From Mycobacterium paraseoulense (lineage in GTDB: Bacteria; Actinomycetota; Actinomycetes; Mycobacteriales; Mycobacteriaceae), in assembly GCF_010731655.1 (NCBI RefSeq), contig NZ_AP022619.1, forward strand, positions 5,704,001-5,768,000: a DNA stretch of 64,000 nucleotides, given 5' to 3'. Below the pieces are notes generated by a model. It was given only the letters and a program-made list of their open reading frames with translations, made no database searches and was not told the DNA's origin. This document shows, one piece after another, positions 42,014 to 50,597 of this stretch. The first letter of the stretch is position 1. Each line of letters begins with the position of its first letter. The position numbers and the translations under genes were made by a program.

Positions 42014-43525
42014 ATGAGTGTTGCTGCCAGCGCCGATCTCATGGACTACGACGACGTCATCGCGCGCTTCGACCCGGTACTGGGCCTCGAGGTACACGTC
42101 GAACTGTCGACCGTCACCAAGATGTTCTGCGGCTGCTCCACCGCCTTCGGCGCCGAACCCAACACCCAGGTATGCCCCGTGTGCCTCGGGTTGCCCGGTT
42201 CGCTGCCGGTTCTCAACCGCACGGCGGTCGAGTCGGCCATCCGGATCGGGCTGGCGCTGAACTGCGAGATCGTGCCCTGGTGCCGGTTCGCCCGGAAGAA
42301 CTACTTCTACCCGGACATGCCGAAGAACTATCAGATATCCCAGTACGACGAGCCGATCGCCATCAACGGGTACCTGGACGCGCCGCTGGAAGACGGCACC
42401 ACCTGGCGGGTCGAGGTCGAGCGCGCGCACATGGAGGAGGACACCGGCAAGCTGACCCACCTGGGGAGCGAGACCGGCCGCATCCACGGCGCGACGACGT
42501 CGCTGCTCGACTACAACCGCGCCGGCGTGCCGTTGATCGAGATCGTGACCAAGCCGATCGTGGGTGCTGGCGCCCGCGCACCGCAGATCGCTCGCGCCTA
42601 TGTCACGGCATTGCGAGACCTGTTGCGCGCCTTGGGTGTATCCGATGTACGGATGGACCAGGGTTCGATGCGTTGCGATTCCAACGTGTCGCTGATGCCG
42701 ACGGGAACGACCGAGTTCGGGACGCGCACCGAGACCAAGAACGTCAACTCGCTGAAGAGCGTCGAGGTCGCCGTGCGCTACGAAATGCAGCGGCAGGGAG
42801 CGGTCCTGGCGTCCGGTGGACGAATTATCCAGGAGACCAGACACTTTCACGAGGCGGGGTATACGAGCCCGGGTCGGGCCAAGGAGACCGCCCAGGACTA
42901 CCGCTATTTCCCCGAGCCCGACCTGGAACCGGTCGCGCCCAGCCGTGAACTGGTCGAGCAGCTGCGCCAGACCATCCCGGAGCTACCGTGGCTGAGCCGC
43001 AAGCGGATTCAGCAGGAGTGGGGTGTTTCCGACGAGGTGATGCGCGACCTGGTCAACGCCGGCGCGGTGGAACTGGTCATCGAGACCGTCAAGCACGGCG
43101 CGGCCAGCGAGTCGGCGCGCGCCTGGTGGGGCAACTTCTTGGTGCAGAAGGCCAACGAGGCGAACGTCGGACTGGACGAACTGGCCATCAGCCCGGCACA
43201 GGTGGCCGCGGTGATCGCGCTGGTCGACGAGGGGAAGCTCTCCAACAAGCTGGCCCGCCAGGTCGTGGAGGGGGTGCTGGCCGGCGAGGGCGAGCCCGAG
43301 CAGGTGATGGCGTCCCGCGGCCTCGAGCTGGTGCGCGACGATTCGGTGACCCAGGCCGCGGTCGACGAGGCGCTGGCCGCCAATCCCGATGTGGCGGAGA
43401 AGATCCGGGGCGGCAAGGTGGCCGCGGCGGGCGCGATCGTCGGCGCGGTGATGAAGGCGACGCGAGGGCAGGCCGATGCCGCCCGGGTGCGCGAGCTGGT
43501 TTTGGCGGCCTGCGGCCAGAGTTGA
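42014..43525 (+). CDS. gatB: Asp/Glu-tRNA amidotransferase subunit B
   Basis: 503 residues (Rv3009c orthologue). [35 protein letters not shown] (zinc-type Cys set), [18 protein letters not shown] and the C-terminal YqeY-like tail are hallmarks. Binds the mischarged tRNA and phosphorylates the acyl group before amidation. Separated from gatCA by pfkA and the MinD-like gene, the latter an insertion. Confidence 0.96.
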
Positions 43526-45788: not shown

Positions 45789-46178
45789 TCACTGATAGGG
45801 GTTGGGGACCCGCCCGGAGCTCGCCTCGGTCAGCTGCGGCAGCGTCGCGAACGTCACCGCGGGCAAGCGCAACTCCGCGCCGCTCTTGAGGTGAGCGCGG
45901 GCCCAGGAACCCCGGTGGAAGCGGAGCCCGTCGATGTCGTCCCATTCCACCGTCCGGCTGCCCAGCAGTGTCCGGACGGTCACCCCGCGATCGTCGGCGA
46001 CGGTGCGTAGGCGGACGATCAATGCCGACAGCAGCACGGGAACGACCAGCAGCGGCGCCGACGGCGGCCACAGCATCACCGGTATCAGCAACCCCAGGGT
46101 GAAGAATGCGACGGCCAGGTGAGCGATCGGGGAGACCTTGATCACGACGGGTGTGTCCGAAGACGAACCGGTAGCCAC
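45789..46178 (-). CDS. cfp6: PH-domain membrane protein (Cfp6/Rv3004 orthologue)
   Basis: 129 residues from the GTG at 46178. Two adjacent hydrophobic helices (HLAVAFFTLGLLIPVMLW and LLVVPVLLSALIV), then a small bacterial PH-like domain (RTVADDRGVTVRTLLGSRTVEWDDIDGLRFH). Low-molecular-mass culture-filtrate antigen family; function unknown. Slightly longer at the N-terminus than I recall for Rv3004. Confidence 0.88.
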   Translation of the reverse strand: MATGSSSDTPVVIKVSPIAHLAVAFFTLGLLIPVMLWPPSAPLLVVPVLLSALIVRLRTVADDRGVTVRTLLGSRTVEWDDIDGLRFHRGSWARAHLKSGAELRLPAVTFATLPQLTEASSGRVPNPYQ

Positions 46179-46275
46179 CCGACCATCATTTCACCCGGCC
46201 TGGGCGAGGGGATCCCCGAGACCACGGGGGGCCGGATTTGACTGCTGAGCTGTGCGAAGGCTACCGTCGGACGTT

Positions 46276-46335
46276 ATGGATACCGCCGGACAGCCCGGGA
46301 TGCTCGTAGTAATTAGTCGGCGCGTTGGTGCCTGA
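46276..46335 (+). CDS. ilvB leader peptide with Leu-Val-Val-Ile run
   Basis: A 19-codon ORF, MDTAGQPGMLVVISRRVGA, lies 120 bp before ilvB1. Codons 10-13 read CTC GTA GTA ATT (Leu-Val-Val-Ile), with another Val at 17. This is the signature of a branched-chain amino acid attenuator leader. GTA and ATT are rare in this GC-rich genome, which would sharpen stalling. The last codons (CGCGTTGGT, 46321-46329) are perfectly complementary to ACCAACGCG at 46365-46373, directly before a terminator. The ATG at codon 9 is an alternative start. No strong ribosome binding site precedes it. Confidence 0.75.
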   Translation: MDTAGQPGMLVVISRRVGA

Positions 46336-46374
46336 CTAGCCTCTCGGCATTTGAAGCTATCCAGACCAACGCGC

Positions 46375-46411
46375 AACCCTCGTGCAGCAGATGAGCTGTC
46401 GGGGGTTTTTT
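46375..46411 (+). terminator. ilvB transcription attenuator
   Basis: AACCCTCG (46375-46382) pairs with CGGGGGTT (46400-46407) over 8 bp including one G-U. A second CAGC/GCTG stem forms inside, and a run of six T follows the G-tract. It is an intrinsic terminator 44 bp before the ilvB start. Together with the leader peptide it forms a classical attenuator; the competing antiterminator helix is not obvious by eye. Confidence 0.75.
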
Positions 46412-46454
46412 GTTGCCCCAGCGAGACTCCCAGAGTGAATAAGGAACAAAGACC

Positions 46455-48323
46455 TTGAGCGCACCCACCAGGCAGCACGCCACACAGCCGCAGCGTGCCG
46501 CCGACGTCGCCTCCGACGCGATCAAGCCGGCCGCGAAATCCTCGACCGCCAAGCCGAAACGCGTTGGGCCCGAGAAGCTTACCGGTGCCCAGTCGGTGAT
46601 CCGGTCGCTGGAGGAGCTCGATGTCGAGGTCATCTTCGGTATCCCCGGCGGCGCCGTGTTGCCGGTTTACGACCCGCTGTTCGACTCGAAAAAGCTTCGC
46701 CACGTGCTGGTTCGGCACGAGCAGGGCGCCGGACACGCGGCCAGCGGCTACGCCCACGCCACCGGAAAGGTGGGTGTGTGCATGGCGACGTCGGGTCCCG
46801 GCGCCACCAATCTCGTCACACCGCTGGCCGACGCCCAGATGGACTCGGTGCCCGTCGTCGCCATCACCGGCCAGGTCGGTCGCACGCTGATCGGCACCGA
46901 CGCCTTCCAGGAAGCCGACATCTCGGGCATCACGATGCCGATCACCAAGCACAACTTCCTGGTTCGCTCGGGCGACGAGATCCCGCAGGTGCTTGCCGAG
47001 GCCTTCCACATCGCCGCCTCGGGTCGTCCCGGTGCGGTGCTCGTCGACATCCCCAAAGACGTGTTGCAGGGGCAGTGCACGTTCCACTGGCCGCCGCGAA
47101 TGGACCTGCCCGGTTACAAGCCGAACACCAAACCGCACAACAGGCAGATCCGCGAGGCCGCCAAGCTCATCGCGGACGCCCGCAAACCGGTGCTCTACGT
47201 CGGCGGCGGCGTCATCCGTGGCGAGGCGACCGAGCAGCTGCGCGAGCTGGCCGAGCTGACCGGAATCCCCGTCGTCACCACGCTGATGGCGCGCGGCGCG
47301 TTCCCCGACAGCCATCGCCAGCACCTGGGCATGCCCGGCATGCACGGCACGGTCGCCGCGGTGGCGGCACTGCAACGCAGCGACCTGCTGATTGCGCTGG
47401 GCACCCGCTTCGACGACCGGGTGACCGGGAAACTGGACACCTTCGCGCCGGAGGCCAAGGTCATTCACGCCGACATCGACCCGGCCGAGATCGGCAAGAA
47501 CCGCCACGCCGACGTGCCGATCGTCGGCGACGTCAAGGCCGTCATCACCGACCTGATCGCGATGCTGCGGCACTACGACATTCCGGGCAACGTCGACATG
47601 ACCGAATGGTGGGCCTATCTGGACAGCGTTCAGTCGACCTATCCGCTGAGTTACGACCCGCAGAGCGACGGCAGCCTCGGCCCGGAATACGTCATCGAGA
47701 AGCTCGGCCAGATCGCCGGCCCGGACGCGGTATACGTCGCCGGGGTGGGCCAGCACCAGATGTGGGCGGCGCAATTCATCTCGTATGAGAACCCGCGCAC
47801 CTGGATCAATTCCGGCGGGCTGGGCACCATGGGGTTTGCCATCCCCGCGGCGATGGGGGCCAAGATGGCCCGCCCGGACGCCGAGGTGTGGGCTATCGAC
47901 GGCGACGGCTGCTTTCAGATGACCAACCAGGAGTTGGCCACCTGCGCCATCGAGGGCGTGCCGATCAAGGTTGCGCTGATCAACAACGGCAACCTGGGCA
48001 TGGTGCGCCAGTGGCAGACGCTGTTCTACGAGGAGCGGTACTCGCAGACCGACCTGGCCACGCATTCGCATCGCATCCCGGACTTCGTGAAGCTGGCGGA
48101 GGCGCTGGGGTGCGTCGGAATGCGTTGCGAGCGTGAGGAAGACGTCGAGGACGTGATCAACGCGGCCCGCGCGATCACCGACCGTCCGGTGGTGATCGAC
48201 TTCATCGTCGGCGCGGACGCGCAGGTATGGCCGATGGTGGCCGCCGGCACCAGCAACGACGAGATTCAGGCCGCCCGCGGGATTCGCCCGCTGTTCGACG
48301 ACGAGAGCGAAGGGCACGCCTGA
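46455..48323 (+). CDS. ilvB: Acetolactate synthase large subunit
   Basis: 622 residues (IlvB1/Rv3003c orthologue); first step of valine, leucine and isoleucine synthesis. ThDP motif [19 protein letters not shown] ending in the NN of INNGN; FAD/ThDP pocket residues in [14 protein letters not shown] and [23 protein letters not shown] start at 46455 follows AAGGAAC; the first ~35 residues are a low-complexity extension. ilvN and ilvC follow in the operon, all under the upstream attenuator. Confidence 0.96.
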
Positions 48324-48850: not shown

Positions 48851-49876
<1,026 letters not shown>

Positions 49877-49888
49877 CTCGCCCTCGAG

Positions 49889-50488
49889 TCAAGAACCCAG
49901 CCGGTCGGCCGTCAGAACCACGCGGCGGGCCAGGTGATCCAAGGCGTTGCCGGTCACCTCGTCGAACTCGTGGATGTTGTCGTGGGTGGAGACCAGGCTC
50001 ACCCCGTACGGATTGCCGTCGACGAACTTGCCCGGGTCGGTGTATCCCGGCGGCACGATGATGCCGCCGAAATGCATCAGCGTGATGTAGAGCGACAGCA
50101 GCGTGGTCTCCTGGCCGCCGTGCAGGGTGTTGGACGACGTGAAGGCCGCGTAGACCCTGTCCGCGAGCTTGCCTTCGGCCCACAGTCCGCCGAGCGAGTC
50201 GAGGAAGGTGCGCAATTGCGCAGCGGGAGAGCCGAAGCGGGTCGGTGAGCCGAAGATCACCGCGTCGGCCCAGACGATGTCCTCGCCCGTCGCCGCCGGA
50301 AGGTCCTTGGTCGCTTCGTAATTCGCGGTCCAGGCCGGGTTCTGGGCGAACGATTCGGGGTCGCGGGTTTCGGCGACGTGCCGCAGGCGGACTTCGGCGC
50401 CCGCGGACTCGGCCGTGGTGGCGACGCGCTGCGCCATCGCGGTGCCATGACCGGTGGCCGAATAGTAGATGATCGCGAGTTTGGTCAC
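49889..50488 (-). CDS. WrbA-like NAD(P)H:quinone oxidoreductase
   Basis: 199 residues from the GTG at 50488. Flavodoxin-like FMN site KLAIIYYSATGHGTAMAQ and the WrbA signature DAVIFGSPTRFGSPAAQLRTFLD, followed by AFTSSNTLHGGQETTLLSL. Two-electron quinone reduction protecting against redox cycling. It occupies the space filled by other genes in M. tuberculosis between ilvC and serA1. The upstream ATG at 50524 is less likely. Confidence 0.88.
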   Translation of the reverse strand: MTKLAIIYYSATGHGTAMAQRVATTAESAGAEVRLRHVAETRDPESFAQNPAWTANYEATKDLPAATGEDIVWADAVIFGSPTRFGSPAAQLRTFLDSLGGLWAEGKLADRVYAAFTSSNTLHGGQETTLLSLYITLMHFGGIIVPPGYTDPGKFVDGNPYGVSLVSTHDNIHEFDEVTGNALDHLARRVVLTADRLGS

Positions 50489-50597
50489 CAGCGCATCGTA
50501 GGACCGCGACGAGCCCCCTCCCAAACCTGCGTCGGCGCAGGTTAGCGCAGTGGTGAGCCCGTCAATGGCCGTAGAAGGCAGCCGTTAGGCTGGCCGG

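What the first reader, a model, noticed from the sequence alone, without database searches (positions are those of the whole stretch)
46276..46411. Leader-peptide attenuator upstream of ilvBNC
A 19-codon ORF with consecutive Leu-Val-Val-Ile codons, a perfect 9-bp complement between its last codons (46321-46329) and 46365-46373, and an intrinsic terminator with six T (46375-46411) precede ilvB. Transcription attenuation of ilvBNC is known in Corynebacterium glutamicum; this looks like the mycobacterial counterpart. Rare GTA and ATT codons at the stall site strengthen the case. A stalled ribosome would mask the first pairing segment. The antiterminator could not be resolved by eye.
Basis: partly seen in the sequence, partly recalled or inferred. 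Interest (0 to 1): 0.75.

Follow-up and report, generated by a model that had tools for sequence, protein, structure and literature searches.

The report
Known leader-peptide switch before ilvBNC
This is the mycobacterial version of a published RNA switch that turns on the genes for making valine, leucine and isoleucine when those amino acids run short, and comparison across related bacteria shows how tightly its parts are spaced.

Summary
Upstream of ilvB (46455) lie a 19-codon ORF with Leu-Val-Val-Ile codons (46303-46314), a perfect helix (P1; 10 bp, 46320-46329 with 46365-46374) and an intrinsic terminator (46375-46411). It is a ribosome-mediated attenuator. This is published: predicted for Mycobacterium ilvB in 2005 (PMC1262725) and supported by experiment for the M. 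tuberculosis ilvB1NC leader, same LVVI codons, in 2026 (PMC13236596).

What I add. All 56 mycobacterial ilvB leaders examined have the ORF, helix and terminator, and a -10 box 7-9 nt before the start codon, so the ORF is probably leaderless. P1 shows compensatory changes. A model of the element hits 185 of 185 near-complete mycobacterial genomes and some in other classes. P1 ends within 2 nt of the terminator, or overlaps it, in 56 of 56 of these leaders and 54 of 60 loci of a phylum-wide set.

One correction: a ribosome stalled on the Leu-Val-Val codons leaves P1 free; one at the stop codon blocks it. P1 is therefore the best antiterminator candidate. In this genome it abuts the terminator without sharing bases, so how it prevents termination is open.

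The parts
46238..46243 (+). -35 hexamer TTGACT, 18 nt before the -10 box
   Evidence: in 56 of 56 mycobacterial leaders the best hexamer (spacers 15-20 tried) matches TTGACA at 5 of 6, always at 18 nt
46262..46267 (+). -10 box TACCGT, 8 nt before the ORF start codon (puts the start of transcription at or within a few bases of the ATG)
   Evidence: TANNNT 8 nt before the start in 53 of 56 leaders, 7 nt in 2 and 9 nt in 1 (the script looked only for spacings of 4-12)
46276..46335 (+). leader peptide ORF, MDTAGQPGMLVVISRRVGA, probably leaderless
46303..46314 (+). regulatory codons CTC GTA GTA ATT (Leu-Val-Val-Ile)
   Evidence: GTA GTA in 56 of 56 leaders
46320..46329 (+). P1 helix, 5' arm GCGCGTTGGT, inside the last codons of the ORF; starts 8 nt after the first base of the last BCAA codon
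46365..46374 (+). P1 helix, 3' arm ACCAACGCGC, directly abutting the terminator
46375..46407 (+). intrinsic terminator stem-loop
   Evidence: -19.7 kcal/mol for 46374-46411, z -4.14
46406..46411 (+). U-tract (T6)
46455..48323 (+). ilvB, acetolactate synthase large subunit (TTG start), regulated gene
   Evidence: NF005860, 1168.5 bits
48323..48823 (+). ilvN, acetolactate synthase small subunit
48854..49876 (+). ilvC, ketol-acid reductoisomerase

Best explanation
A ribosome-mediated transcription attenuator of ilvBNC. RNA polymerase starts at or next to the ATG at 46276 and a ribosome begins on the leaderless ORF at once. With enough charged Leu, Val and Ile tRNA the ribosome runs to the stop codon (46333) and covers the 5' arm of P1 (46320-46329); P1 cannot form, the terminator closes, and transcription ends at the T6 tract. 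When these tRNAs run short the ribosome waits on CTC/GTA/GTA/ATT, P1 pairs with 46365-46374 before the terminator is made, termination fails and ilvBNC is transcribed. Shown here: the parts, their conservation, base pairing by covariation, and geometry. Shown by others in M. tuberculosis: a short leader transcript, induction on IlvB1 inhibition, and loss of induction when LVVI is changed to AAAA. Inferred: the leaderless start in this organism; that P1 is the antiterminator; and that it acts by abutting or overlapping the foot of the terminator so that the hairpin cannot close in time in the RNA exit channel.
For: Anatomy. Genus: 56 of 56 leaders with ORF, P1 and terminator; model R1 hits 194 of 198 mycobacterial genomes, 185 of 185 of those at least 90% complete and at most 5% contaminated. 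P1 by compensatory change: four of eight pairs changed on both sides in 12, 14, 3 and 13 of 46 sequences; 42 such cells against 14.7 in shuffles, 0 of 500 as high; 94.0% of cells paired against at most 56.4% when slid. Adjacency: gap 0 in 33 of 56, -5 to +2 in 56 of 56, while the loop runs from 15 to 43 nt; in shuffled spacers gap 0 falls in 3.5% and -5 to 0 in 21.6%, observed 52 of 56. Geometry: with the A site 14, 11 and 8 nt before the P1 core (the last BCAA codons in most loci) some P1 pair exceeds probability 0.5 in 56, 56 and 55 of 56 loci; at the stop codon in 0 of 56 (pairing across the ribosome was forbidden by assumption, which decides the stop result for the 26 long ORFs). Published function: PMC13236596 (section 10 part 1 and passages).
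Against: At equilibrium the terminator forms whether or not P1 does: mean probability 1.00 in every state, and 0.99-1.00 in four of six states. So in this genome P1 does not exclude the terminator by sharing bases; a kinetic or steric step must be assumed. In the other two states (no ribosome, 0.60; A site on ATT with pairing across the ribosome allowed, 0.31) the terminator falls because the ORF's 5' part pairs with its 3' arm, a possible antiterminator that I cannot exclude in this clade. The minimum-energy fold of the naked 136-nt leader does not contain P1, though the centroid does. The rows behind the covariation counts were taken from loci where a scan had already found such a helix, and odd ones were dropped, which favours P1. 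In-line probing of the Corynebacterium element is reported to conform to P1 and P2 together, its authors propose another antiterminator, and their change of one conserved BCAA codon there had no effect (PMC10272879). Codon changes in the Streptomyces coelicolor ilvB leader are reported without effect (PMC1262725). I have no transcript or start-site data for this organism.
Confidence: 0.92

Rival explanations
1. trp-type or ilvB-II-type logic: P1 belongs to the OFF state together with the terminator, and a separate antiterminator (in the Corynebacterium model, the P1 loop pairing with the right shoulder of the terminator) forms when the ribosome stalls.
For: Proposed for the Corynebacterium ilvB-II motif (PMC10272879). 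P1 and the terminator are compatible in folding. In this clade the ORF's 5' part can pair with the terminator's 3' arm, with a weak excess over shuffles: 12 of 56 loci at p <= 0.05, mean -11.6 against -9.1 kcal/mol; the same test gives 51 of 56 for the P1 arms. A stall on ATT covers the first five bases of the P1 arm.
Against: P1 loop with terminator 3' arm: 0.61 of shuffles at least as good, 1 of 56 loci at p <= 0.05; with 5' arm 0 of 56 (uninterrupted helices only). The 12 of 56 include related sequences and the ORF 5' part varies between species. This logic gives no reason for a P1-terminator gap held near zero, nor for a stop codon placed where a ribosome blocks P1 in both ORF classes.
Confidence: 0.2
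2. An arrest peptide: the conserved C-terminus (RRVGA and relatives) stalls the ribosome by sequence rather than by lack of charged tRNA.
For: Similar C-terminal residues recur in many loci across the phylum.
Against: Pairing can explain the conservation: where the arm departs, the partner follows (pair types; L187 read by eye), and peptides differ (GLRVDA, HCALVVA, CRRVGAA). LVVI to AAAA abolishes induction in M. tuberculosis (PMC13236596).
Confidence: 0.03
3. A constitutive leader with a terminator but no amino-acid response.
For: Seliverstov et al. report that codon changes in S. coelicolor ilvB had no effect (PMC1262725).
Against: GTA GTA in 56 of 56 loci, P1 covariation, and the M. tuberculosis reporter results (PMC13236596).
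Confidence: 0.03

Closest known systems
ilvB1NC attenuator of Mycobacterium tuberculosis (Eckartt et al. 2026, PMC13236596; section 10 part 1 and passages read)
   Same: Same gene, LVVI regulatory codons, GUA and UGA as stall and stop codons, terminator before ilvB1, leader length of the same order (U-tract end +126, gene +168 there; +136 and +180 here, counted from the ATG).
   Different: Figures are not held, so I could not see which bases the paper draws as the antiterminator. The text I read does not mention the abutting geometry.
Candidate ilvB leader peptides with terminators in Corynebacterium, Mycobacterium and Streptomyces (Seliverstov et al. 2005, PMC1262725; part 1 of 3 read)
   Same: Short ORF with Ile, Val and Leu codons and a terminator upstream of ilvB.
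   Different: In the part read no antiterminator is given for ilvB and the mode of regulation is called not clear. P1 and its adjacency are added here.
ilvB-II motif of Corynebacterium (Narunsky et al. 2023, PMC10272879; section 10 part 1, section 14 and passages read)
   Same: uORF rich in BCAA codons, stems P1 and P2, P2 an intrinsic terminator; reporter lower in rich medium.
   Different: Described for Corynebacterium only, with a different antiterminator proposed. Model R1 misses all 7 genomes of unnamed genus g3, perhaps Corynebacterium (inference).
ilvL of Streptomyces lividans, MRTRILVLGKRVG (PMC8079986; passages read)
   Same: Same peptide as several Streptomyces loci here. Reported as transcribed leaderless, with a terminator.
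   Different: Streptomyces ilvBHC operon.
trp attenuator of Escherichia coli (recalled)
   Same: Ribosome position on a leader ORF decides termination.
   Different: There stalling masks segment 1 and a 2:3 antiterminator shares bases with the terminator. Here stalling on most of the codons leaves P1 free, and P1 abuts the terminator.

Membership tests
Ribosome-mediated (leader-peptide) transcription attenuator | Short translated ORF with runs of codons for the pathway's product | tested here: met
   CTC GTA GTA ATT at 46303-46314; GTA GTA in 56 of 56 leaders. Translation itself was not tested here.
Ribosome-mediated (leader-peptide) transcription attenuator | Intrinsic terminator between ORF and structural gene | tested here: met
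   46375-46411
Ribosome-mediated (leader-peptide) transcription attenuator | Alternative structure whose formation depends on ribosome position | tested here: met
   P1 forms with the ribosome on the BCAA codons and not at the stop (computed); covariation
Ribosome-mediated (leader-peptide) transcription attenuator | The alternative structure excludes the terminator | tested here: inconclusive
   P1 shares 1-5 bases with the terminator in 19 of 56 loci and abuts it or is 1-2 nt away in 37; equilibrium folding does not exclude the terminator
Ribosome-mediated (leader-peptide) transcription attenuator | Readthrough rises when the amino acids are limiting | not testable with these tools
   Reporter evidence for M. 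tuberculosis in PMC13236596, none for this organism
Mycobacterial ilvB1NC attenuator (Eckartt 2026) | LVVI codons and terminator before ilvB in an ilvBNC operon | tested here: met
   text of PMC13236596
ilvB-II motif (Corynebacterium) | Antiterminator formed by P1 loop with the terminator's right shoulder | tested here: not met
   Not above shuffles in 56 mycobacterial loci (uninterrupted helices only). The published alignment was not available to build a model.
Classical trp-type four-segment attenuator | Stalled ribosome masks segment 1 and frees a 2:3 antiterminator | tested here: inconclusive
   Stall on CTC, GTA, GTA leaves P1 mostly free, stall on ATT covers half the arm. P1 loop with either terminator arm not above shuffles; ORF 5' part with the 3' arm weakly above.
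Riboswitch, T-box or other Rfam family | Match to a curated covariance model | tested here: not met
   Only two tRNAs in the whole window at gathering threshold; nothing at E <= 1 over 46100-46600

The most novel reading that the evidence does not exclude
The element is an old Actinomycetota-wide ilvB attenuator in which the antiterminator is not a competing pairing but a neighbouring hairpin. P1 is placed at about zero distance from the terminator so that, once folded, it sterically or kinetically keeps the terminator's foot from closing in the RNA exit channel. Translation failure at the start codon would then switch the operon ON, the reverse of trp.
Probability: 0.35. Interest if true: 0.55.

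Novelty: already known. Interest (0 to 1): 0.3.

Why it matters
Acetolactate synthase feeds all three branched-chain amino acids, and the 2026 paper says that attenuation of ilvB1 in M. tuberculosis had been uncertain before. The added value here is structural: a covarying helix with near-fixed distances to the stall codons and to the terminator gives a testable model of how the ribosome's position is read out, and a covariance model finds the element in nearly every mycobacterium sampled. If the no-shared-base antiterminator is right, searches for attenuators that demand overlapping pairings will miss others like it.

Tried and rejected
Rfam gave no family. The simple promoter/terminator scan found nothing at the site and was not relied on. 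A first orientation error in my script made 17 minus-strand loci look like misses, among them L110; corrected. L110 and L131 miss the strict anchor but carry the element with Ala in place of the last BCAA codon. Alternative antiterminators tested and not supported genus-wide: P1 loop with terminator 3' or 5' arm, BCAA codons with either arm. ORF 5' part with terminator 3' arm is weakly supported and kept as a rival.

Rows and drops; 60 of 78 loci with upstream DNA (2 of the 80 have too little) gave an element under lenient cut-offs, with no shuffled control for this set; the 8-nt spacing was tried first, which favours it. Six of the 60 lie outside gap -5 to +2: L008 (92) and L015 (53), for which the scan had picked a helix at gap 1; L042 (-8, likely spurious); L047 (+3); L048 and L081 (+4). 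Eighteen of 78 gave none; by record title 12 of these are Microbacteriaceae (genus-to-family assignment recalled). One search, the earlier scan, gave 60 of 79 sequences including the window. Alignment A1 has 46 rows: the window plus 45 of the 60. Left out: L008, L015, L042, L047, L048, L055, L060, L065, L081 as odd, and L016, L020, L037, L040, L044, L058 as near-duplicates or very short loops. In one search I looked by eye at the 11 family genomes without a model hit, all of which have IlvB: seven (L187, L188, L193-L197) seem to have BCAA codons, a P1-like helix and a terminator; four (L189-L192) show none to me. This was not scored.

Full report
Observation. The window holds, in order, a promoter-like pair TTGACT/TACCGT (46238-46243, 46262-46267), an ORF 46276-46335 coding MDTAGQPGMLVVISRRVGA, a helix P1 (46320-46329 with 46365-46374), a terminator 46375-46407 with T6 to 46411, and ilvB from 46455. 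ilvB, ilvN and ilvC are named by NCBIfam. The leader DNA has one match in its genome. P1 and the terminator taken alone are each more stable than shuffles (z -3.96 and -4.14); longer stretches less so (z -1.61 to -2.67), and the minimum-energy fold of the naked leader lacks P1 although its centroid has it.

Genus. Of 60 mycobacterial genomes searched for IlvB, 60 have a match at E <= 0.001 and 58 one over the family cut-off. I took upstream DNA for 56 of these 58, including the window's own genome as L090. The other two, G005 and G032, have ilvB 186 and 160 bases from a contig start and were not fetched; model R1 hits both. All 56 have an ORF with GTA GTA, a P1 helix of 8-17 bp and a terminator. 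The start codon stands 8 nt after a TANNNT box in 53, 7 nt in 2 and 9 nt in 1. A -35 hexamer matching TTGACA at 5 of 6 lies 18 nt further up in 56 of 56. With such spacing the transcript would begin at or within a few bases of the start codon, so the ORF is probably leaderless. Streptomyces lividans ilvL is reported as leaderless (PMC8079986, passages), and the title of a cited C. glutamicum paper speaks of leader peptide formation without a ribosome binding site (seen in a reference list).

Distribution. A covariance model (R1), built from the window and 45 named actinobacterial loci (A1), hits 194 of 198 mycobacterial genomes and 185 of 185 of those at least 90% complete and at most 5% contaminated. 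The four misses are G003, G070 and G126 (63-73% complete) and G059 (7% contamination, no IlvB over cut-off). In the family it hits 110 of 121 genomes and 29 of 31 genera. In a thin sample of the phylum it hits 52 of 246. Of these 52, 34 are labelled 'same phylum' only, so presumably of other classes, with best E values from 1.8e-7 to 0.009; by E value two or three chance hits are expected among 246 genomes. The other 194 have none, so the element is far from universal in the phylum as this model sees it. Of the 12 'same phylum' loci fetched, 9 have an IlvB relative in the stretch held; of all 49 loci L138-L186, 46 have one. Seliverstov et al. already listed Corynebacterium, Mycobacterium and Streptomyces (PMC1262725, part 1 of 3 read).

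P1 is real RNA structure. RNAalifold, not told the answer, predicts it on the 46-sequence alignment. Four of its eight pairs have compensatory changes, in 12, 14, 3 and 13 sequences. Against controls: 94.0% of cells paired (shuffled 87.1, 0 of 500 as high), 42 cells changed on both sides (14.7, 0 of 500), 17 further pair types (13.8, 12 of 500), covariation score 0.305 (0.177, 0 of 500), at most 56.4% paired when slid. The number of pairs with a change on both sides is not above shuffles (4 against 3.4; 216 of 500 reach it), and the terminator helix shows one-sided changes only. The controls do not remove shared ancestry, and the rows were chosen after a scan for such a helix with nine odd loci dropped, which favours P1. 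In the 56 unselected mycobacterial leaders, 95% of P1 cells pair over 31 distinct arm pairs, against 18-44% when slid by 1-3, and one column alternates between G-C and A-U.

Spacing. In 45 of 60 phylum loci the core of the 5' arm starts 8 nt after the first base of a BCAA codon (8 was tried first). The 3' arm ends at the terminator: gap 0 in 33, -1 in 11, -4 or -5 in 8, +1 in 3 and +2 in 1 of 56 mycobacterial loci; gap -5 to +2 in 54 of 60 loci of the phylum set, 7 of which are mycobacterial by title. In shuffled spacers of the 56 the best helix ends at gap 0 in 3.5% and at -5 to 0 in 21.6%; observed 33 and 52 of 56. The P1 loop varies more: sd 6.8 nt in the genus against 1.7 for the gap, and 11.7 against 1.5 in 57 of the 60 phylum loci, L008, L015 and L042 left out. 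Selection therefore seems to hold the 3' arm at the foot of the terminator.

Ribosome geometry. With 15 nt before and 12 nt after the first A-site base masked, P1 forms in the full-length leader at mean pair probability 0.99, 0.99, 0.79 and 0.40 for A site on CTC, GTA, GTA and ATT, and 0.00 for the stop codon. Over 56 loci some P1 pair exceeds 0.5 in 56, 56 and 55 with the A site 14, 11 and 8 nt before the P1 core (the last BCAA codons in most loci), and in 0 at the stop. There are two ORF classes: 30 short ones whose stop lies in or just after the 5' arm, and 26 long ones whose stop lies just before the 3' arm. In the long class the result at the stop rests on my assumption that RNA cannot pair across a ribosome. 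In both classes a ribosome at the stop is placed to prevent P1. This agrees with the text of PMC13236596 (section 10 part 1 and passages; figures not held): a ribosome reaching the stop masks the antiterminator, one stalled at LVVI lets it form.

Open point. In the window P1 shares no base with the terminator, and folding predicts the terminator in every masked state. So either P1 acts by timing and space, being made first and sitting at the hairpin's foot, or another pairing is the antiterminator. In 8 of 56 loci P1 overlaps the terminator by 4-5 bases and in 11 by one, which fits the first. The Corynebacterium proposal (P1 loop with the terminator's right shoulder, PMC10272879) is not above shuffles in mycobacteria. 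A pairing of the ORF's 5' part with the terminator's 3' arm appears in this clade with a weak excess over the 56 (12 at p <= 0.05; 51 for the P1 arms by the same test). The exit-channel idea rests on general knowledge; one literature search on it was seen as a listing only.

Known or new. The finding as given is known: predicted in 2005, supported by experiment in M. tuberculosis in 2026. Searches listed PMC13236596 or PMC1262725; PMC10272879 came from a reference list and PMC8079986. The text that I read of these does not describe the abutting arrangement, though Seliverstov et al. say that the ORFs overlap the candidate terminator hairpins. I saw no figures or supplements and no subscription papers, so I do not claim that the arrangement is unpublished. 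Interest 0.3.

Noticed in passing
46282-46294 with 46395-46406: The ORF's 5' codons can pair with the terminator's 3' arm; with no ribosome, or with one at ATT, this lowers terminator probability to 0.60 or 0.31. A test over 56 leaders gives 12 at p <= 0.05.
   Followed up: partly
L082-L137: Mycobacterial leader ORFs fall into two length classes: 30 short, and 26 with about seven more codons (such as ..AALALTRA) whose stop lies just before the P1 3' arm.
   Followed up: partly
46412-46417 and relatives: The bases just after the U-tract (GTTGCC or CTTGCC) look alike in many mycobacterial leaders (by eye); no reason found.
   Followed up: no
L187: A relative lacking the GCGCG core seems to keep P1 with both sides changed (by eye).
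   Followed up: no
L177, L180, L183: Model matches labelled 'same phylum' without an IlvB relative in the stretch held; the downstream gene was not identified.
   Followed up: no
42909-42982 (-): ARAGORN calls a tRNA-Val inside the long ORF 42014-43525 on the other strand; Rfam's tRNA model does not list it. Probably a false positive.
   Followed up: no
49889-50524 (-): A flavodoxin-like FMN reductase gene lies on the opposite strand between ilvC and serA.
   Followed up: no
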